From Candidatus Methanoplasma termitum (GTDB lineage Archaea; Thermoplasmatota; Thermoplasmata; Methanomassiliicoccales; Methanomethylophilaceae): a stretch of 64,000 bases of DNA. The translations under genes were made by a program, and so were the position numbers. Shown here in pieces: positions 7,250 through 63,858 of the stretch. The stretch spans positions 1,116,001 to 1,180,000 of the forward strand of contig NZ_CP010070.1 of NCBI RefSeq assembly GCF_000800805.1, written 5' to 3'. The notes below the pieces were generated by a model. It worked only from the letters and a program-made list of their open reading frames with translations, made no database searches and had not been told where the DNA came from. The number at the start of each line of letters is the position of its first letter. Positions within the stretch are counted from its first letter, which is position 1.

Positions 7250-7349
7250 TGCGAGGGAGGGGATTCGAACCCCTGAACCCCTGCGGGACAGAATTTCTTC
7301 CCTTTGGAGTCTTAAGTCCTGCGCCTTTGGCCAACTCGGCTACCCTCGC
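7250..7349 (-). tRNA. tRNA-Leu(UAA) with a 16-nt intron
   Basis: Read on the minus strand, acceptor arms GCGAGGG and CCCTCGC pair fully, with discriminator A at 7250 and no encoded CCA. The anticodon arm is CAGGA-CTTAAG...A-TTCTG with anticodon TAA, the long variable arm is TCCCGCAGGGGTTC as expected for tRNA-Leu, and the T arm is AGGGG-TTCGAAT-CCCCT. To close the anticodon stem, 16 bases (ACTCCAAAGGGAAGAA, 7295-7310) after position 37 must be removed, the canonical archaeal intron position. Confidence 0.93.
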
Positions 7350-54572: not shown

Positions 54573-56223
54573 CCTGACTTTGACAGTAGCTCCGCTGCCT
54601 GATTGTTAAATCTTAATAATTTGACAGAAGAGAAGACCTCGTTTCCGAGGAACACTTCACCCTCTCTTCTACACGAAAAGACCGCTTTTACATGTGTTAT
54701 GTCTCCGATAACAGCCCGAACGAACGCATTATGGAGATGTTAAGAGGGTTGAAGTTCGATAATATGCGTCTTTCCCTGCCGTCCGCTCCCCTTTCCACAG
54801 TAAGTGTCAACTTTTGCATGCTGTCCGTAATGAATTTCGTTGCCGTCGAAGATGCTGGCTTAGTGAAAAGACGTTTCACGGAAACCAACGCCTGAGCGAG
54901 AAAACCTATCAAAAGGATCCCGTACACGCCGTTCTCGGTCCATGCTCTGATGGGCCTTATCCCGATGTCCGACTTCATCGACGAGAACAGTTTCTCGATG
55001 ACATCCTTGTCCCTGTATATCGACCGTGCTTTCAGCGGTTCCATGTCCGCGTCGGACACTAAACAGAAGAACCCCTCCCTCCCGGTGACCTCCTTTTCCC
55101 TGAGGATCCGCAACGCCTCTTCATCCGATATTCCGGAAAGTTTCGTTTGGAGATAGATGTCTGCCTTGATCAGGACGTTATCGATCTCGTACCTCTTCTT
55201 CATCTTCTTTCCTTTTTCGAGATCTTCCTGAAGGGACTTTGCTTCCCTGAGCTTCTTCCCTATCTTCTTTTCAATGCCCTTCATCTCGAGCTCATAAAGC
55301 TCCCCGGAAAAATAGTAGTAATTCACCCTGGACGGGAATGCCTTCTTGAGACAATATTCCTCCTTCTCCTTATCCAGGCATTCCCATTCTTCCGTTGAGA
55401 ATCGGGCGAAGAGTTTATCATCGCTCTTGTTGAGCTGCTTCCTTGTCAGAAAATGTCTCCTGTCGTTGACGATGCCGTCCAGAACGTCCTTTTGACTGGC
55501 ACCCGCGTCGAAGACCATCATCGATCCTTCGGAAAGGACATCCTTTACCTGACCGTAAGTGCGGATCATATGCTTCCCGTCGTGGGTGTTGCCGGGCATG
55601 ACGGTCATTCTGACGGGGACGCAGAACGGCTTCGCCAGCTGGGATATCCCTATGGTGACCTGGCATTCCTCGGGTTGACCATCTCTGGAATGCCCCCTCG
55701 CCGCCAGTTCCGGCTCGCTGCCGAAATAGACAAGCGAGGTCCAATAGAATATCATATCCGTTATCTCCGGGCCGTACATTCTCATGAATGTTCTCCTGAA
55801 GTGGCCGATGATCAGTTCGCGGTTCTCTCCCATGGTCTCAACGGCACGGTACAAAGTTTTGACATTAAATCCGGGCAGCCCCATATGCTTCCGCACAGGC
55901 TCCCGCATTGCGAATTCATGGCATCTCAGGATGCTGAAGTTGTCGCCGAGCTTGTATGCGACCATAAGCTCGGCAAGCTTGCCGAGGTCTATGCCCTTGG
56001 TCTTCAGATCGTTCAGGAGACGGGACAGACCGAAAAGTTCAAAGAACGCCTCGGTCAGAAGGATGTTCCCGATGGGAACGGATATATTTGCGTTAGGCTT
56101 TATCTCAGATGTTCTGAAATTGGTTTGTTTGGTCATAAACTTGTATTTCAGAACACCCCCTTATCTTTTTGCCGGAACAGCCTGCCAGCATTACATCGAA
56201 AGCGACCTCATGTCAAAGTCAGG
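54573..56223. mobile_element. IS1634-like insertion sequence with inverted repeats and target duplication
   Basis: The element is bounded by the perfect inverted repeat CCTGACTTTGACA (54573-54585) and TGTCAAAGTCAGG (56211-56223). Directly outside, ATCAAA is repeated on both sides (54567-54572 and 56224-56229), the expected 6-bp target duplication. Between them lies one intact transposase gene. Total length 1651 bases. The intact structure suggests a recent insertion. Confidence 0.9.
54697..56136 (-). CDS. IS1634/IS4-group transposase
   Basis: The 479-residue DDE transposase has an N-terminal domain with LLTEAFFELFGLSRLLNDLKTKGIDLGKLAELMVAYKLGDNFSI, the first catalytic region VTIGISQLAKPFCVPVRMTVMPGNTHDGKHM, the second Asp in SMMVFDAGASQKDV, and the late RSIYRDKDVIEKLFSSMKSDIGIRPIRAWTENGVYGILLIGFLAQAL with the catalytic Glu. 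No frameshift. It fills the IS between its inverted repeats. Confidence 0.92.
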   Translation of the reverse strand: MTKQTNFRTSEIKPNANISVPIGNILLTEAFFELFGLSRLLNDLKTKGIDLGKLAELMVAYKLGDNFSILRCHEFAMREPVRKHMGLPGFNVKTLYRAVETMGENRELIIGHFRRTFMRMYGPEITDMIFYWTSLVYFGSEPELAARGHSRDGQPEECQVTIGISQLAKPFCVPVRMTVMPGNTHDGKHMIRTYGQVKDVLSEGSMMVFDAGASQKDVLDGIVNDRRHFLTRKQLNKSDDKLFARFSTEEWECLDKEKEEYCLKKAFPSRVNYYYFSGELYELEMKGIEKKIGKKLREAKSLQEDLEKGKKMKKRYEIDNVLIKADIYLQTKLSGISDEEALRILREKEVTGREGFFCLVSDADMEPLKARSIYRDKDVIEKLFSSMKSDIGIRPIRAWTENGVYGILLIGFLAQALVSVKRLFTKPASSTATKFITDSMQKLTLTVERGADGRERRILSNFNPLNISIMRSFGLLSET

Positions 56224-56408: not shown

Positions 56409-57542
56409 ATGAAAATAGCGATCGGGATAGATGTGCATAAGGAAAAATGTGCGACGTTTGCAGTGTACGCAGGCAAAGAAGAGCCGAGAAAGAAGAACCT
56501 GGATTTTTTGGAAAGATTCAACGCCGATTTCCGGAGATTCCCTTCGGACGCTGCGGGAATGGTCGGACTGACGAACCGCCTTCACGGTCAGGATGCGTAT
56601 ATTCTGATAGAGAATTCGACCAAGTCTCGCGACGTCTATTGGATGCTGACCAATCTCGGGTTCAGAGTGACGGTGGCTCATGCCGCCGACCTGTACAGGA
56701 TAACCAGGTCCAAAACAAAGAACGATGATAACGACGCTGCTGAACTGGCGGGGTATATGCGCAGGCGGCTGATGAGGGAGATCGAGTTCGCCGTCGCCCA
56801 TATGCCTTCGCGGGAGGTGCTGGTGCAGAGGGAATTGTGCAGGTTCGATATCAACGACAGGAATGATCTGACCGCTTTGAAAAAACAGATCAGATCCCAT
56901 CTTCTGATAAGAGGAATGAAGCTGTCCCGCGATTACTCCGACATCACCTGTGTTCTTGCCCTCAGGGAGCTGAAGGCAACGGGAGACCACATTCTCATTC
57001 TGGATGCGGCGAAGGCCGAGAGTATCAAAGCGAGAAAGTCTCAGACAGAGAAGATGATCCGATACAGGATGGAAGGCAACAGGATGTTCGATATCGTTTG
57101 GTCGGTCCCGGGATTCGGTATCCTATCTGCGGCGTATGTCACGTGCATGGCCGATGATATGACACGTTTCGTGGACGGGCGGGCATTCGCCGCATCTGCC
57201 GGAATAACCCCCAAACTTGACGAATCCGCCGACAGACCGAAGAACTGCGGGATCAGCCGCAGAGGGGACCCGGGGCTCAGGAGGCTGTTGTGCCAAGCAA
57301 CGTTCGTTCACATAAACCATGCGGACTCGTTCATATCCGAGAAATACAAACGTCTGAAGGCCAACGGCAAACATCACAACGAGGCGTTGGTGGCATGTGC
57401 GAATTCCATGGCCCGCATGATCTGGGCCATGGTGACCCATGACAGGAAATATTCCGCAGACCCGACAGTGATGGCTGTGACAAGATATCTCGCCGATTCC
57501 GACGAGATAGAGGATGAGATGGAGGCAGCGCAGACAGAATGA
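56409..57542 (+). CDS. IS110-family recombinase (DEDD transposase)
   Basis: The 377-residue protein has the RuvC-like N-terminal catalytic domain: AIGIDVHKEKCATFAVY (Asp8), YILIENSTKSRDVYWML (Glu about 62), and TRSKTKNDDNDAAELAGYM with the last Asp pair (about 103-107). The C-terminal Transposase_20 domain follows: MFDIVWSVPGFGILSAAYVTCMADDMTRFVDGRAFAASAGITPKLDESADRPKNCGISRRGDPGLRRLLCQATFV, containing the catalytic Ser region. The chain is complete and has a GGAGGAGG ribosome site before ATG 56409. IS110 elements lack normal terminal inverted repeats, so the element borders cannot be fixed. Confidence 0.92.
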   Translation: MKIAIGIDVHKEKCATFAVYAGKEEPRKKNLDFLERFNADFRRFPSDAAGMVGLTNRLHGQDAYILIENSTKSRDVYWMLTNLGFRVTVAHAADLYRITRSKTKNDDNDAAELAGYMRRRLMREIEFAVAHMPSREVLVQRELCRFDINDRNDLTALKKQIRSHLLIRGMKLSRDYSDITCVLALRELKATGDHILILDAAKAESIKARKSQTEKMIRYRMEGNRMFDIVWSVPGFGILSAAYVTCMADDMTRFVDGRAFAASAGITPKLDESADRPKNCGISRRGDPGLRRLLCQATFVHINHADSFISEKYKRLKANGKHHNEALVACANSMARMIWAMVTHDRKYSADPTVMAVTRYLADSDEIEDEMEAAQTE

Positions 57543-57980: not shown

Positions 57981-58415
57981 TCAGCTTGCACGCGTTTCGA
58001 ATCCATCCAATACCGTTCCAAACCATCCCCAATGATCATAGACTGCCCAGCTCTTACCTTTCGAGTAATAATTGTCGCGCGCACTCACGTAAGAATTCCA
58101 CATACTCGTCGTTAAGTTTCCGGCAATCCATGATCCAACAGCACCCACAAGTGCCGATATTCCGGCCGTAAACGGTGCAGCTCCATATCCAACTATTGCT
58201 GAGGCGGTCGCTATCGAGATGGTTAGGCCAGCTGCTGCAGCTGTCGTCATAACCATCAGGTTGAGACCACTGCTGCCACTGTATTGCCCAAGTTTATCCC
58301 AGTGATCGCCAAAAATGCCTCCTGTGATATATTCCATTTCATCACTATCTATATCAACATAACCATTTGGTAATTTGAATCCATTATGGTTATAATCCAT
58401 AAAACTTGTTTCCAT
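57981..58415 (-). CDS. Double-glycine leader peptide, bacteriocin-like precursor
   Basis: The 144-residue precursor has a 33-residue leader ending IDSDEMEYITGG, which matches the LSxxELxxIxGG consensus cut by peptidase-C39 transporters after Gly-Gly. The mature part would be 111 residues beginning IFGDHWDKLGQ. It contains a long hydrophobic, Gly/Ala-rich stretch (about residues 54-98, MVMTTAAAAGLTISI and ISALVGAVGSWIAG) able to span a membrane as a helical hairpin, and a Trp/Tyr-rich tail (AVYDHWGWFGTVLDGF). AGGAGG at 58423-58428 stands 7 bases before the ATG. A C39 transporter and an HlyD adaptor follow divergently, so an exported antimicrobial or signalling peptide is likely; activity is not shown. 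Confidence 0.85.
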   Translation of the reverse strand: METSFMDYNHNGFKLPNGYVDIDSDEMEYITGGIFGDHWDKLGQYSGSSGLNLMVMTTAAAAGLTISIATASAIVGYGAAPFTAGISALVGAVGSWIAGNLTTSMWNSYVSARDNYYSKGKSWAVYDHWGWFGTVLDGFETRAS

Positions 58416-58501
58416 TTTATTTCCTCCTGTTGCTTTTTAACGCAACTAAATATAATAAGATTATAATAGATATTTATATATTGGTATATTGTTTATAGAT
58501 T
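58416..58501. promoter_or_regulatory. Divergent promoter of the peptide export module
   Basis: The 86 AT-rich bases carry TTTATATA (58473-58480) placed about 25 bases before the ATG at 58502, which fits a leaderless plus-strand transcript. The same run read on the minus strand (TATATAAATATC) would give the peptide gene a leader of some 35 bases including its AGGAGG site. A second minus-strand box TTATATTT is at 58448-58455. Expression of precursor and export genes may thus be coordinated. Confidence 0.55.
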
Positions 58502-58894
58502 ATGGAAAACAGAACTGACAGACAAAGTTTCATTGTATTAGCGGCTCTAGTGGGGTCTCTTTTCTCTTGGTTGTTTGTATGGTCATTTATAGGCTCCATA
58601 TACGTTTTGTCTTTAATGTCCATAGCTTTGTTGACATTGGCAACGATAATGTATAGGCCACGCAACGAGGGCTGGTTTGAAAACTGGGATGGAAGACCAC
58701 GCCACGCATTTACTTTTGCGTCGGCATTGGGGTTAATCGCTGGGTCAATGAATATATTGTTTTATGACGGTCGAAGTTTTTCTTCATTGTTGTGTGGCAT
58801 CATTGCTTTTGTGGTGGGCATAGCTACTCTCATAATGTGCATATATGCAAACAATAACTACAGGGTACAAATAGTTAAAAAAAATATCCAATAA
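58502..58894 (+). CDS. Four-helix membrane protein, candidate immunity protein
   Basis: The 130-residue protein has four hydrophobic segments (about residues 10-30, 32-50, 69-87, 94-112) with a polar loop RPRNEGWFENWDGRPRH between pairs and a basic tail. No family is recognised. Small multi-pass membrane proteins next to a bacteriocin gene often give self-immunity, and this one is the only such candidate in the module, divergent from the precursor. The role is inference from position. Strongly AT-rich. Confidence 0.65.
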   Translation: MENRTDRQSFIVLAALVGSLFSWLFVWSFIGSIYVLSLMSIALLTLATIMYRPRNEGWFENWDGRPRHAFTFASALGLIAGSMNILFYDGRSFSSLLCGIIAFVVGIATLIMCIYANNNYRVQIVKKNIQ

Positions 58895-58928
58895 ATGTAT
58901 ACAATCATCATCAAAAGGCATATTGAAA

Positions 58929-59387
58929 ATGGTTCACACAATAGATATAAAAAATGAAAAGTATTTAGTTACAAAGCAAGTAGTTTTCATGTCTATTGAT
59001 AATGCGTTCCAGATGGGCACATCAGTAAATACGTTTGCTACAAAGCTAAAAGCATATAGACTATCAGTAACGGGGCCACCCATTATTCGAGGAAGGGTCG
59101 ATTTCAATGGGGGCGAAGTTCTTATAAAAAAAGACATAATGTTACAATTTGTAGGTAATCCCGTGACTCTTCCAAAGGAGTTCGAATGGAAAGAACATTT
59201 AAAGATAGGTCCATGCGTTTATGCACGGTTCCGAGGGAGAGAAGAAAATCTCATTTTTGCCTCTCAGAAAATATCTGTTTATGCATATGAGAATGAGATC
59301 GAACTGAAAAAAGAAAGCTATACTGTATATGTTGAAAAAACTAATGTCGCAGTAACAATTGATATTTTCATACCACACGAGGATTGA
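58929..59387 (+). CDS. GyrI-like (effector-binding fold) protein in the peptide module
   Basis: About 152 residues from ATG 58929 (MVHTIDIKNEKYLVTKQ); an ATG at 58923 adds two. The C-terminal half, GPCVYARFRGREENLIFASQKISVYAYENEIELKKESYTVYVEKTNVAVTIDIFIP, follows the pattern of GyrI-like / AraC effector-binding domains, which bind amphipathic small molecules or peptides. There is no DNA-binding domain. It is 4 bases from the HlyD gene and so probably works with the exporter, perhaps in peptide binding or protection. The fold assignment is tentative. Confidence 0.6.
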   Translation: MVHTIDIKNEKYLVTKQVVFMSIDNAFQMGTSVNTFATKLKAYRLSVTGPPIIRGRVDFNGGEVLIKKDIMLQFVGNPVTLPKEFEWKEHLKIGPCVYARFRGREENLIFASQKISVYAYENEIELKKESYTVYVEKTNVAVTIDIFIPHED

Positions 59388-59390
59388 CTC

Positions 59391-60485
59391 ATGGTGATTA
59401 AACGTATTCAACACCTTAATGATTTGAAAGACAGCGCATTGTTATATAATAAGAATCCACCAAAATTTATGACAATCATCATATTAGTGATTTTTATTGC
59501 TTTGATTATAACTGTTGTAATAGCAGATAATAAACAGAAATCAGAATCCATTCAGAGCATAGGGATTGTTCAATCAGAAAGCAAACAATATGTTATGTCT
59601 CCATTTGGTGGAGAGATAGACGAAATCTGTGTTGAAGAAGGTGTGGCGGTCGAGAAAGGCGACATACTAATTATTATTGGTGCAACCGATGAAAAAGCCC
59701 AACTGGAACTTTATAAAAATCTTTCGAACTATTACTTTGACATCTTGAAAGGATATTATAAAATGTATGATGCCGTCGATAACTACAACATTAATAATGA
59801 TGCAGGAGCTGACCTTTACAATAAAAACCCTTTTGATGCAAATTCAGAAAAAATAATGTACATTTCATATCAGAATTTTTTACGTCAAATGGCTGAAGTT
59901 ACAGATGACGATAATCACTCATTGATGGAGAACAGACAATTGTATTTAGATCAATCATTAATGAGTTGTAATCAAATGATAATGCAATATGAACCAACAT
60001 ATAAACAGACTCTTTATCAGAAAGAATATTATCAGGCCATTATTGATAAGCACACCATTACGGCAGAGACAGATGGCACGGTTCATTTTGAAACAACTCT
60101 TGGTACGAGGATGGTAGTATCTGTCGGTACCGTATTGTTTTCTATTTCAAACATGGCTGAAGATAATAGTGCGCTCATAAAGCTCCAAATTCCTGCCGCA
60201 TATCGCCCACATATATCCATAGGCTATAAAACTCAAATCGAAGTGGCTGGCTATCCAAGTGAAGCATATGGGAAGTTAAACGGCAGAATTACAGAGATAT
60301 CAAGTGACAGCAATGTAGATTCAAATGGTAACGTGTGGTTCACAGCTTACGTGATTGTAGACGATACAATCATGATTGGAAGGGCAGGAGCTGTCAAAGT
60401 TGTCAATGGCATGATGGTTTCAGCCACCATTATTTATGAAAATTCTACTTGGTTGGAGTGGATTCTAAAAGGATTAGGACTATAA
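59391..60485 (+). CDS. HlyD-family adaptor for peptide export
   Basis: The 364-residue protein has one N-terminal membrane helix (about residues 25-46), a biotinyl-lipoyl-like segment (YVMSPFGGEIDEICVEEGVAVEKGDILIIIGATDEKAQLEL), a helical hairpin (about 105-210) and the second half of the lipoyl and beta-barrel domains (DKHTITAETDGTVHFETTLGTRMVVSVGTVLFSIS). This is the bacteriocin secretion accessory protein type (LcnD/MesE-like). The stop TAA overlaps the ATG of the transporter gene by one base. Confidence 0.88.
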   Translation: MVIKRIQHLNDLKDSALLYNKNPPKFMTIIILVIFIALIITVVIADNKQKSESIQSIGIVQSESKQYVMSPFGGEIDEICVEEGVAVEKGDILIIIGATDEKAQLELYKNLSNYYFDILKGYYKMYDAVDNYNINNDAGADLYNKNPFDANSEKIMYISYQNFLRQMAEVTDDDNHSLMENRQLYLDQSLMSCNQMIMQYEPTYKQTLYQKEYYQAIIDKHTITAETDGTVHFETTLGTRMVVSVGTVLFSISNMAEDNSALIKLQIPAAYRPHISIGYKTQIEVAGYPSEAYGKLNGRITEISSDSNVDSNGNVWFTAYVIVDDTIMIGRAGAVKVVNGMMVSATIIYENSTWLEWILKGLGL

Positions 60486-62731
60486 TGAGAAAGAACATAA
60501 TCGTTAAACAACACGACTCAACAGATTGTGGTGCTGCAGCACTTGCGATGATATGTTTATATTATGGCAAAGAGGTCACTATTACTGGCCTCAGAGATGC
60601 GTGCGGCACGGACATTCTTGGAACAAATGTTGAGGGATTGTGTACAGGGGCAAAGAAACTTGGATTAGACACCAAGCCAATACGCATATCAGATGATGAA
60701 TTTATAAAAGGAGAATTCACATTGCCAGCAATTTGTCATGTTGTAACGAAGAGTGGTTTCCATCACTATGTCGTACTAACAAAAATAAGCGCTGAGGGTG
60801 TGGTTGTTTTAGATCCAGCTCTTGGAAAACGTAAACTCTCACATGAGGAGTTCTCAAAAGAGTTTGACAATATTGTTATTCTAATAAAACCCTCATCTGA
60901 TTTCAAAGCTTCAAAAGTCGATAAAAAGTCTTTATTTTATAGGCTTATGAGTCTTGTTTTGAATCAAAAATGGTTATTTATTACAACAATAATTGCTGGA
61001 TTCCTCATCACGGTGTTGGGAATTGTGTCTTCCTTTTTTAATAAGTTTCTTATAGATGAGATACTGCCATTCGGCCTTAAGGATCAACTACTAACTTTGG
61101 TGCTAATTTTTATTATAGTTGCTTTAACGAATATTGCATTGGGTGCAATAAGACAACACGTTGTTCTTCACTTGTCACAGAAGATCAGCATACCGCTTAT
61201 GCTGGGATACTATACACACGTACTGAACCTCCCAATGAAGTTCTTTGGAACAAGGAAAACAGGAGACATCATCACAAGATTCCAAGATGCCGGGACTGTT
61301 GTTTCTGTGGTATCTGGAATAATACTGACACTAATACTTGACGTGCTATTTGCAATTGTAACGGGAGTTGTTCTTTATATGATCAATCCATCCTTGTTTG
61401 GAGTAATAGTTGTTTTTACTTTGGTCAGTGTGGTTTTAGTGTACATATTCAGGCAACCTTACAAGAAAATCAACCGTGAACAAATGGAAGCCGCCGCATC
61501 GTTAAACTCTACAACAATAGAATCGCTAAGGGGGATTGAAACAGTAAAGGGAAATGCTGCCGAAGAAGAAACGATGGAGAAAATTGAAAATCGATTTGTA
61601 AGAACATTGCGCATAGCCTACAGAGCGAATGTACTCTCAAATTATCAAGGTATTGTATCCTCGTCGATTTCAATGATCGGTGGCTTGTTGATAATGTGGC
61701 TTGGTGCAATGTATGTAATAAGTGGAGATATCACACTTGGAACCCTTATGGCATTTTCATCACTAACTGGATTCTTCATGGGCCCAATAGGTAGGCTAGT
61801 CAATGTCCAATTTCAAATTCAAGAAGCTGATATCGCTCTCAGGAGGCTCAGTGAAATACTTGATGTAGAAGAAGAGTGTGAAACACATAAAGGAAAAAGT
61901 ATTCCCGAAACTTTCTTTGGAAACATCTCCATTGAGAATCTGAGTTTCAGATATGGGTTCAGAAAACCCATTTTGTCTGATGTTTCGATAGAAATAAAAG
62001 GTGGCGAAAAAGTAGCTCTCGTGGGGGAGAGTGGTTGTGGAAAGACAACAATTTGTAAAGTCATCATGGGACTCTGGGTTCCTGAAAGCGGAAAGGTGAA
62101 TATTGCCGGATACGACCTTGAAGAACTTGACATACAATCATATAGAAAAAGAGTGGCATACGTCCGACAAGAAGTTGAATTGTTCAGCGGAACAATAACA
62201 GATAACATTCGAGTTTCACTTCCAACAGCCACCGACGATGACATTCGAAGGGCGTGTGAAATGGCAGGTTGTTCAGATTTCATCAGCAGGCTACCTTCAA
62301 GATATGAAACTTATCTAGAAGAGGCGGGAGCAAACCTTTCCGGTGGTGAAAGGCAACGCATAGGGTTGGCAAGAGCGTTTGTGAAGAAACCGGAGTTACT
62401 GATCCTGGATGAAGCCACCAGTAATCTCGATTTCTTATCTGAAGCAAAAGTTTACGACACGTTATTCAATAAGCTGAAGTGCACCACTATCATCGTTGCG
62501 CACAGACTATCTACAATAAGAAGATGTGATAAAATTTTCATGATGGCCAATGGGAAGGTTGCAGAGGCTGGAACTCACGATGAGCTTATTGAAAAGCATG
62601 GGTTATACTGGAAGATGTGGAATAGCCAGATAGGGAATGATGTTTCTTCAACAAAAGAAGACAAGCTGAAGAATCAATCGAAAGAAGACGCCATGTATGA
62701 AAATGATGATGATTTCATTTCATATGTGTGA
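60485..62731 (+). CDS. Peptidase-C39 ABC transporter (peptide processing and export)
   Basis: The 748-residue protein removes double-glycine leaders and exports the peptide. The N-terminal C39 peptidase has KQHDSTDCGAAAL with Gln9 and nucleophile Cys15, FHHYVVL with His94, and VVLDPALGK with Asp110, so the triad is complete. A six-helix exporter domain follows (about 150-440) with MKFFGTRKTGDIITRFQDAGTV. The ATPase domain has Walker A GESGCGKTT (about 513-521), LSGGERQRIGLARA (about 618-631) and LLILDEATSNLD. I start at ATG 60485, which overlaps the HlyD stop; the frame is open to 60449. AT-rich relative to the chromosome. Confidence 0.95.
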   Translation: MRKNIIVKQHDSTDCGAAALAMICLYYGKEVTITGLRDACGTDILGTNVEGLCTGAKKLGLDTKPIRISDDEFIKGEFTLPAICHVVTKSGFHHYVVLTKISAEGVVVLDPALGKRKLSHEEFSKEFDNIVILIKPSSDFKASKVDKKSLFYRLMSLVLNQKWLFITTIIAGFLITVLGIVSSFFNKFLIDEILPFGLKDQLLTLVLIFIIVALTNIALGAIRQHVVLHLSQKISIPLMLGYYTHVLNLPMKFFGTRKTGDIITRFQDAGTVVSVVSGIILTLILDVLFAIVTGVVLYMINPSLFGVIVVFTLVSVVLVYIFRQPYKKINREQMEAAASLNSTTIESLRGIETVKGNAAEEETMEKIENRFVRTLRIAYRANVLSNYQGIVSSSISMIGGLLIMWLGAMYVISGDITLGTLMAFSSLTGFFMGPIGRLVNVQFQIQEADIALRRLSEILDVEEECETHKGKSIPETFFGNISIENLSFRYGFRKPILSDVSIEIKGGEKVALVGESGCGKTTICKVIMGLWVPESGKVNIAGYDLEELDIQSYRKRVAYVRQEVELFSGTITDNIRVSLPTATDDDIRRACEMAGCSDFISRLPSRYETYLEEAGANLSGGERQRIGLARAFVKKPELLILDEATSNLDFLSEAKVYDTLFNKLKCTTIIVAHRLSTIRRCDKIFMMANGKVAEAGTHDELIEKHGLYWKMWNSQIGNDVSSTKEDKLKNQSKEDAMYENDDDFISYV

Positions 62732-62775: not shown

Positions 62776-63631
62776 TCAGCATCCCCGAACTTGACATTTC
62801 CAGACCAACCCCGAAGTTGTGACTATGCATCTAAACCTGGCCTTGGCGTGTCTTGTTTCCTCCTTACGCCCGGCCAGCACTTCTCCCAGAACGCGTTTTA
62901 TCATTGAATTCACGGTTTCGGCGATAGCCCTGATGCCGTACGTTGATTTGAGTTCCGTTCCTTCCGTCAGCTCCCTCTTCATCCTGTTCCTGTTGACCCC
63001 TCTTGTTCTCGTTCCGTTCCTGAACGTCCTTGCGGGTATGACGGCCTCGGCATCCAGATACTTCCTGACCATCTTGTGGACGTACTCGGCATCGTATCCC
63101 TTGTCTGCAACCAACGCCTCGATCCGGAACTCCGCATCGGCGAGTTTTGTCAGAAGGGCCCCATTCTTTTCACGTCGGCGGTCCTTGAGTCGGCGCGGTG
63201 TCCGCGGTCAATATCGCTTTCGTATGAACGCATACGGCCAGCGTCAGCTTCGTATACCCTCTGACGACCGCTTCCTCAATGCCGAAGTACTTCAGCTGGA
63301 GGATATAATGTTTGGATGCATGCGAAGTCGGCATCCCCGTCGCATCCGCCGCAACGATGACGTCATCGTTGCCGACGATCATCATGCTCTGGGTCGCCAG
63401 GATGCGGCCCAATACTCCGGGGTTCAAACGCCCCCTGAATTTGCGGAGGGTCGTCTCTTCGGGAATATCCGATATCCCCGTCGCTTCCGTGACGGTGACA
63501 AGCGACGGAAGTATCATAGAGAACTCGGCAAAGGATTTCCCGAGATATTCTTTCACCGCCAATAAGGCCACCTTCGCATGGTCTGAATATGTTCTCTTGC
63601 TCTTCTTCGACGAATATTCCAGATATCCCAT
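62776..63631 (-). pseudogene. IS5-like transposase gene broken by a frameshift
   Basis: The start is MGYLEYSSKKSKRTYSDHAK at 63631. The upstream part runs to about 63185 and contains VIVAADATGMPTSHASKHY (first Asp) and KLTLAVCVHTKAILTADTA. The coding then continues in a different frame as RRLKDRRREKNGALLTKLADAEFRIEALVADKGYDAE (second Asp) and AETVNSMIKRVLGEVLAGRKE (Glu) to 62776. One frame change near 63185-63195 separates the halves. No typical slippery site is seen, so decay or a read error is more likely than programmed frameshifting. The frame extends to 63802 but that part is not transposase-like. Confidence 0.85.
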
Positions 63632-63858
63632 ACCTGAAAGTATCAAGAATGTTGTCCTCACTATACCGGCTAACCTGTCGGCTCTCCGAGCCGTTCCTCT
63701 GCATCCCACACTAATCCCATCCTTGGGATGGCCATTCTCTGATCGGATCAGCCATCCCGTGGGAGTGAAATGGTCTTGCCAGCGATAAAAATATAATGCC
63801 AAAACAATTCAAGATCGGTCAACAGTATAATTTCCTGAAAGCCTTGACCTACATTTCT

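What the first reader, a model, noticed from the sequence alone, without database searches (positions are those of the whole stretch)
57981..62731. Complete double-glycine peptide export system in a methanogen-like archaeon
Precursor with a Gly-Gly leader, small membrane protein, GyrI-like protein, HlyD adaptor and a C39 peptidase ABC transporter sit in one compact module. Seen directly: leader consensus, complete Cys/His/Asp peptidase triad, one-base coupled HlyD-transporter genes. Known: this set defines class II bacteriocin export in Gram-positive bacteria. Inference: an archaeal antimicrobial or signalling peptide, probably gained from gut or sediment bacteria. Defined archaeocins (halocins, sulfolobicins) do not use this route.
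Basis: partly seen in the sequence, partly recalled or inferred. Interest (0 to 1): 0.88.

Follow-up and report, generated by a model that had tools for sequence, protein, structure and literature searches.

The report
Gut-methanogen peptide exporter with immunity-like protein
A methane-producing archaeon of the Methanoplasma genus (known from termite guts) carries a compact gene set, shared with a spore-forming bacterium from human faeces, that looks built to make, hold safely, cut and export a membrane-active peptide, probably a weapon against microbial competitors.

Summary
A divergent five-gene module at 57981-62731 has a Gly-Gly precursor, a 4-TM protein, a GyrI-fold protein, HlyD and a C39 ABC transporter, in a closed 1.49-Mb Methanoplasma-genus chromosome. 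It is not contamination and not unique. A sister genome has all five genes. The transporter, HlyD and GyrI-fold trio recurs in about a dozen related genomes, and a spore-forming human-gut Firmicute contig carries it with the same leader. Thirty leader hits (about 19 core types) share a conserved proline (-18 or -17) and tyrosine (-15 or -14), while their cores vary. Leader family, GyrI-fold gene and C39 co-occur across 199 relatives.

The GyrI-fold protein is closest to DUF5085, whose studied members bind glycine zippers of pore-forming toxins before secretion. The leader register (Pro-18, Tyr-15) matches that recognised by the pneumococcal RtgAB exporter, whose locus also holds a GyrI-like gene.

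Best reading: a horizontally exchanged, Rtg-type exporter of glycine-rich hydrophobic peptides; the GyrI-fold protein shields cargo in the cytosol and the 4-TM protein gives immunity outside. Export is well supported. Antagonism and the shielding role are inferred, and a formal glycine zipper is not significant.

The parts
57981..58415 (-). Gly-Gly leader precursor gene, 144 aa
   Evidence: Leader profile E=6.4e-12 in own genome; homologue 39-44% identical in L045 at the same divergent position; no family above cut-off
58317..58415 (-). leader peptide, residues 1-33 (Pro-18, Tyr-15, Ile-12, Met-7, Ile-4, Gly-Gly)
   Evidence: register as in RtgG of pneumococcus (PMC7018657)
57984..58316 (-). 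predicted mature peptide, 111 aa, glycine/alanine-rich hydrophobic core
   Evidence: AlphaFold2 uninformative (pLDDT 34.5)
58423..58428 (-). AGGAGG ribosome-binding site of the precursor
   Evidence: sequence
58502..58894 (+). 130-aa membrane protein with 4 predicted TM segments, candidate outer-face immunity protein
   Evidence: hydropathy; 32-33% identical homologue only in L045; fastest-evolving gene of the module (pN/pS 0.63)
58923..59387 (+). GyrI-fold, DUF5085-like protein (start TTG 58923 or GTG 58932)
   Evidence: conserved in 15 of 199 relatives, 14 with C39; 8 of 13 members match DUF5085, best E=3.4e-6; AF2 and Foldseek
59391..60485 (+). HlyD-type adaptor, 364 aa, one N-terminal TM
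   Evidence: Pfam HlyD_3 E=6.8e-12; TIGR01000/TIGR01843 below cut-off
60485..62731 (+). peptidase-containing ABC transporter, 748 aa
   Evidence: TIGR01193 above cut-off; catalytic and ATPase motifs
60500..60898 (+). C39 peptidase domain with Cys15/His94/Asp110
56409..57542 (+). flanking IS110-family transposase
   Evidence: Pfam; 7 near-identical chromosomal copies
54697..56136 (-). flanking DDE transposase
   Evidence: Pfam DDE_Tnp_1
62776..63802 (-). probable decayed transposase in two frames on the other flank
   Evidence: ORFs; no Pfam hit for 63170-63802; transposase identity inferred from sequence; single copy

Best explanation
A horizontally exchanged exporter of Gly-Gly peptides of the type first described as pneumococcal Rtg. 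The precursor is made in the cytosol. Its leader (Pro-18...Tyr-15...Ile-12...Met-7...Ile-4-Gly-Gly) docks on the C39 domain, which cuts after Gly33 while the ABC transporter, aided by HlyD, passes the 111-residue product through the cell membrane. The mature part is a glycine/alanine-rich hydrophobic helix former that acts on membranes of competing microbes. The GyrI-fold, DUF5085-like protein binds the hydrophobic part of the cargo before export (a chaperone and cytosolic safety catch, as ExiB does for EsxX). The fast-evolving 4-TM protein protects the producer's membrane from the outside. Shown: gene content, fold, leader family, co-occurrence, sharing with a gut Firmicute. Inferred: cleavage, export, membrane activity, both protective roles.
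For: Transporter family and catalytic residues. Leader family and register equal to Pro-18 and Tyr/Leu/Met/Leu of RtgG, in a locus that also lists rtgX 'GyrI-like' (PMC7018657). Co-occurrence in 199 relatives: C39 with DUF5085-like 14 of 15 (Fisher 2.5e-14), C39 with leader 14 of 18 (4e-12). GyrI fold and DUF5085 profile hits. DUF5085 proteins ExiB and TipE neutralise glycine-zipper toxins (PMC12744356, PMC10434224). Divergence gradient against the sister locus: transporter 82%, HlyD 61%, DUF5085-like 55%, precursor 44%, membrane protein 33%, as for cargo and immunity genes. About 19 unrelated cores behind one leader. Glycine spacing i+7 and i+11 enriched and i+3 depleted (P 0.001, 0.024, 0.9995), as for a helix with a glycine face. 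Firmicute homologue and tree.
Against: Formal glycine-zipper motifs are not enriched over shuffles (28 against 24, P=0.24) and the window precursor has none. The window GyrI-fold protein itself has no DUF5085 hit, and the best family member scores 28 bits against a cut-off of 30. Fisher tests ignore shared ancestry. RtgA and ExiB could not be fetched for direct comparison. No expression or activity data; the function of the rtg peptides is itself unproven.
Confidence: 0.58

Rival explanations
1. The exported peptide is a signal (pheromone) for cell-cell communication, not a toxin.
For: C39 transporters also export pheromones; a conserved leader fits either use (PMC7018657).
Against: The mature product is mostly about 60-124 aa, hydrophobic and extremely variable, with up to 7 per genome, unlike short pheromones; no sensor kinase or regulator gene in the module.
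Confidence: 0.13
2. The peptide is a structural or cell-surface protein (adhesion, biofilm) exported by the C39 route, as for Gly-Gly microproteins of Synechococcus.
For: Gly-Gly proteins with biofilm roles exist (PMC4997328, abstract); conserved aromatic C-terminus GWFG-VLDGFE in the window and L045 precursors.
Against: High core diversity and a fast-evolving membrane partner; DUF5085 proteins characterised so far guard against membrane toxins.
Confidence: 0.13
3. The GyrI-fold protein binds a small molecule or antibiotic (like CtaZ, STM3175 or SbmC) and is only a resistance or sensing gene carried along with the exporter.
For: Foldseek's best matches are small-molecule binders.
Against: Near-obligate partnership with the exporter in 14 of 15 genomes, lying directly next to HlyD and/or the transporter; the only sequence family that matches, DUF5085, is a protein-binding immunity family.
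Confidence: 0.16
4. The locus is a decaying remnant with no current function.
For: Transposases on both sides; a second copy in the same genome is clearly broken (stop in the leader, truncated HlyD and C39); copies in G012 are broken too.
Against: All five genes are intact with purifying selection (pN/pS 0.14-0.63 against L045) and a good ribosome-binding site.
Confidence: 0.08

Closest known systems
Pneumococcal rtg locus (RtgAB peptidase-containing ABC transporter with rtg Gly-Gly peptides and rtgX 'GyrI-like'), PMC7018657
   Same: C39 ABC transporter plus adaptor, Gly-Gly peptides, a GyrI-like gene and small membrane proteins in one locus; leader with Pro-18 and Tyr-15/hydrophobic-12/Met-7/hydrophobic-4
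DUF5085 immunity proteins ExiA/ExiB (EsxX) and TipE (TelE) of type VII secretion loci, PMC12744356 and PMC10434224
   Same: About 150-aa GyrI-fold cytosolic protein encoded beside a secreted protein with a glycine-rich hydrophobic segment; separate membrane proteins
   Different: C39 ABC exporter instead of T7SS; one protein rather than a pair; below the Pfam gathering score; conserved as a partner of the transporter rather than of one toxin
Caulobacter CDZ system (CdzABCDI), PMC5380434
   Same: Two divergent operons of five genes; type I ABC and adaptor; small hydrophobic bacteriocin proteins; small membrane immunity protein
   Different: CDZ has two glycine-zipper peptides, an outer membrane to cross, and no GyrI-fold gene among its five genes
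Class II bacteriocin export (LagD/ComA/BlpA type, TIGR01193)
   Same: Peptidase-containing ABC transporter above cut-off, HlyD-type adaptor, Gly-Gly leader
   Different: 111-aa core, additional GyrI-fold gene, no match to class II bacteriocin families
Archaeal C39/Gly-Gly island of Makarova et al. 2019 (PMC6393860, Fig. 2E) and C39 genes in Methanobacterium (PMC8115248)
   Same: C39 with Gly-Gly leader proteins, or C39 alone, in an archaeon
   Different: The passages read mention no GyrI-fold gene, leader family or sharing with gut bacteria

Membership tests
Peptidase-containing ABC transporter (TIGR01193) | score over curated cut-off and C39 + TMD + NBD architecture | tested here: met
   612.6 against 523.9 bits; Pfam C39, ABC_membrane, ABC_tran
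Peptidase-containing ABC transporter (TIGR01193) | catalytic Cys/His/Asp | tested here: met
   C15, H94, D110 invariant in 15 sequences
Gly-Gly leader peptide | hydrophobic -4/-7/-12/-15 and GG at -2/-1 next to a cognate transporter | tested here: met
   I-4, M-7, I-12, Y-15, GG
Gly-Gly leader peptide | cleavage by the C39 domain | not testable with these tools
   needs an enzyme assay
Rtg-type system | leader with Pro-18 and the Tyr/Leu/Met/Leu-like hydrophobic register | tested here: met
   Pro-18 in window, L045, L041, L080, L077 and bacterial L094; Pro-17 in 23 others. Use in recognition by the transporter not tested
Rtg-type system | transporter and GyrI-like protein homologous to RtgA and RtgX | not testable with these tools
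   those sequences were not reached in the collections searched
DUF5085 (PF16895) | Pfam score over the gathering cut-off | tested here: not met
   best member L054 28 against 30 bits, E=3.4e-6; window copy no hit
DUF5085 / GyrI-like superfamily | GyrI-like fold (duplicated SHS2) | tested here: met
   AF2 pLDDT 90.8, Foldseek CtaZ, CTR107, BmrR, SbmC
Class II bacteriocin | match to a class II bacteriocin family | tested here: not met
   PF10439 10.1 against 27.1 bits; no such NCBIfam hit for the window precursor
Glycine-zipper toxin | (G/A/S)xxxGxxxG or GxxxGxxx(G/S/T) in the core, above chance | tested here: not met
   none in the window core; pooled P=0.24. i+7 glycine spacing enriched
Class II bacteriocin | antimicrobial activity | not testable with these tools
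   needs a bioassay

The most novel reading that the evidence does not exclude
A GyrI-fold, DUF5085-like protein is a dedicated cytosolic cargo guard of a distinct class of C39 peptide exporters, found in archaea and Firmicutes. It links the pre-secretion immunity of type VII toxins with ABC-exported peptides, and host-associated methanogens use it to deploy a large, variable repertoire of membrane-active peptides exchanged with gut bacteria.
Probability: 0.4. Interest if true: 0.78.

Novelty: new variant of a known kind. Interest (0 to 1): 0.64.

Why it matters
Known weapons of archaea are few, and to my knowledge none of the experimentally studied ones uses the Gly-Gly/C39 route. This family gives testable candidates in gut methanogens, shows a peptide-export module crossing between archaea and gut Firmicutes, and proposes a role for an uncharacterised GyrI-fold partner gene that also appears in streptococcal loci.

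Tried and rejected
Contamination: rejected (single closed contig, IS copies elsewhere in it, sister genomes). Plain glycine-zipper claim: tested and not significant. Precursor structure: AlphaFold2 uninformative (pLDDT 34.5). GyrI-fold family against solved structures by sequence: nothing useful. Search of viral contigs with the GyrI-fold alignment and with the bacterial transporter: nothing; plasmids with the bacterial GyrI-fold protein: nothing. PADLOC: nothing. Double-membrane envelope of the order as a reason for HlyD: papers found did not address it, dropped. Monophyly of the archaeal transporters: only 70/55 support, so the number and direction of transfers stay open. Paraclostridium plasmid hits were not fetched.
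Full report
Where it is. The window is positions 1,116,001-1,180,000 of a closed 1,488,669-base chromosome, 99.96% complete. The genome labelled 'same genus' G012 holds a contig of 31,072 bases, the same length as a contig of Candidatus Methanoplasma glyptotermitis (L040/L060). The host is therefore a Methanoplasma-type methanogen (order Methanomassiliicoccales); size and closure fit Ca. Methanoplasma termitum, which is from memory and not tested.

Observation. All five genes are present and intact as described. The transporter passes the curated cut-off for peptide cleavage/export transporters. The precursor gene faces away from the other four, with an 86-base gap between them. HlyD and transporter overlap by one base. 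G+C falls to 34-39% in the core of the module against about 44-53% in most of the window, and transposases flank it; the left IS110 has six further near-identical chromosomal copies. That ties the locus to this chromosome and suggests acquisition.

Not a one-off. A search of 199 relatives finds C39 in 24, the GyrI-fold gene in 15 and the leader family in 18. Overlaps with C39 are 14 of 15 and 14 of 18 (not corrected for ancestry). In an even sample of 293 genomes of the phylum, only members of the same family had a close transporter. L045 (the contig of Methanomassiliicoccaceae MAG Co191P4bin17, also held as L039) has the full divergent module. In most other relatives the order is transporter, GyrI-fold gene, HlyD. 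The host also holds a second, broken copy near 955,700-957,000: a stop in the leader, truncated HlyD and C39, with an intact 6-TM gene beside it.

The precursor family. Leader hits in the relatives share P-x-x-Y-x-x-(L/I/M)...E-M-E-Y...G-G; of 30 examined, 24 end in GG. In the window and five others, including a bacterial one, the proline sits at -18 with Tyr or Phe at -15, hydrophobic -12 and hydrophobic -7; in 23 it sits at -17. In pneumococcus, RtgAB selects its substrates through residues -22 to -18, Pro-18 among them, and RtgG carries Tyr/Leu/Met/Leu at -15/-12/-7/-4 (PMC7018657). That locus also lists rtgX, a GyrI-like hypothetical protein, and putative integral membrane proteins. I take this as the closest known system. 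The cores behind this leader fall into about 19 unrelated types, mostly hydrophobic and glycine-rich. Formal glycine-zipper motifs are not more common than in shuffled cores. Glycines are however spaced at i+7 (43 against 28 expected, P=0.001) and i+11, with i+3 depleted, the pattern of a helix with a glycine face. The i+7 result survives correction for 14 spacings; it is modest evidence.

The GyrI-fold protein. By sequence, 8 of 13 members hit Pfam DUF5085, best E=3.4e-6, just under the gathering score. DUF5085 proteins ExiA/ExiB form a dimer whose ExiB groove sequesters the glycine zipper of EsxX in the cytosol before secretion, while the membrane pair ExiCD protects from outside (PMC12744356); TipE neutralises TelE (PMC10434224). 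By analogy the archaeal protein guards the cargo before export and the 4-TM protein guards from outside. Two observations refine this. First, genomes such as G061 have one GyrI-fold gene and seven precursors, so the protein must serve many cores: a general guard or leader-binding chaperone fits better than one-to-one immunity. Second, the 4-TM protein has a relative only in L045 and evolves fastest, as expected of cargo-specific immunity.

Exchange with bacteria. Two human-faecal contigs filed as phage, L094 and L095, carry transporter (46% identical), GyrI-fold gene (E about 1e-38) and HlyD, and L094 has a precursor with the -18 leader. L094 also encodes the sporulation factor SigG and GlmS, so it is a spore-forming Firmicute fragment rather than a phage. 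In the tree these, the window clade and the other archaeal clade form one group with 100/100 support against Bacilli transporters; the archaea are not firmly one clade. Exchange is likely, its direction is open.

Verdict. Gly-Gly peptide export is about 0.9 likely. Antagonistic use is about 0.6. The cargo-guard role of the GyrI-fold protein is about 0.5. The module is a new variant of a known kind: an archaeal, Rtg-like exporter with a DUF5085-like partner. Literature searches in the open library found no description of this combination in archaea; that is a limited search, since most subscription papers are not held.

Noticed in passing
L050:10700-13078 and L053:8276-11788: HlyD adaptors of 792 and 1170 aa in relatives: the hairpin region contains near-repeats of a block (e.g. 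'NIDILLDLVADYDGTPVSSPF...DEFRFYYLFENF'), so adaptor length varies from 350 to 1170 aa.
   Followed up: partly
L046:11647-11931, L047:9050-9328, L048:5475-5753: In genus g4 a different C39 system lies near a 92-94-aa protein whose Nif11/NHLP-like leader (LSEEQLGAVTGG) is followed by a zinc-ribbon-like core (CPxCG...YYECxxCG), an odd cargo for Gly-Gly export.
   Followed up: no
G000:C1:955764-957000 (L062:7381-8984): Second, broken copy of the module in the same chromosome; an intact 214-aa 6-TM gene remains beside it, possibly a retained immunity gene; a similar 214-aa gene sits beside the precursor in L049.
   Followed up: partly
L040/L060:1299-5358: In Ca. Methanoplasma glyptotermitis the transporter gene is split near residue 85 by an inserted stretch with a 565-aa ORF, and the other C39 genes of that genome are fragments, although it keeps several precursors.
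   Followed up: partly
L050:932-1555 and L051:2938-3579: Pair of related 207-213-aa proteins (two N-terminal and one C-terminal TM, soluble middle) near the exporter in two relatives, no Pfam family for L050; other candidate immunity or accessory genes.
   Followed up: no
window 7250-7349 (-): Rfam reports a tRNA of about 100 bases (RF00005, 47.7 bits) that ARAGORN did not list, possibly an intron-containing tRNA.
   Followed up: no
L094:12701-14201: Downstream of the module in the gut Firmicute lies a protein with Ig-like-looking repeats and a C-terminal membrane anchor; not checked for a link to the exporter.
   Followed up: no
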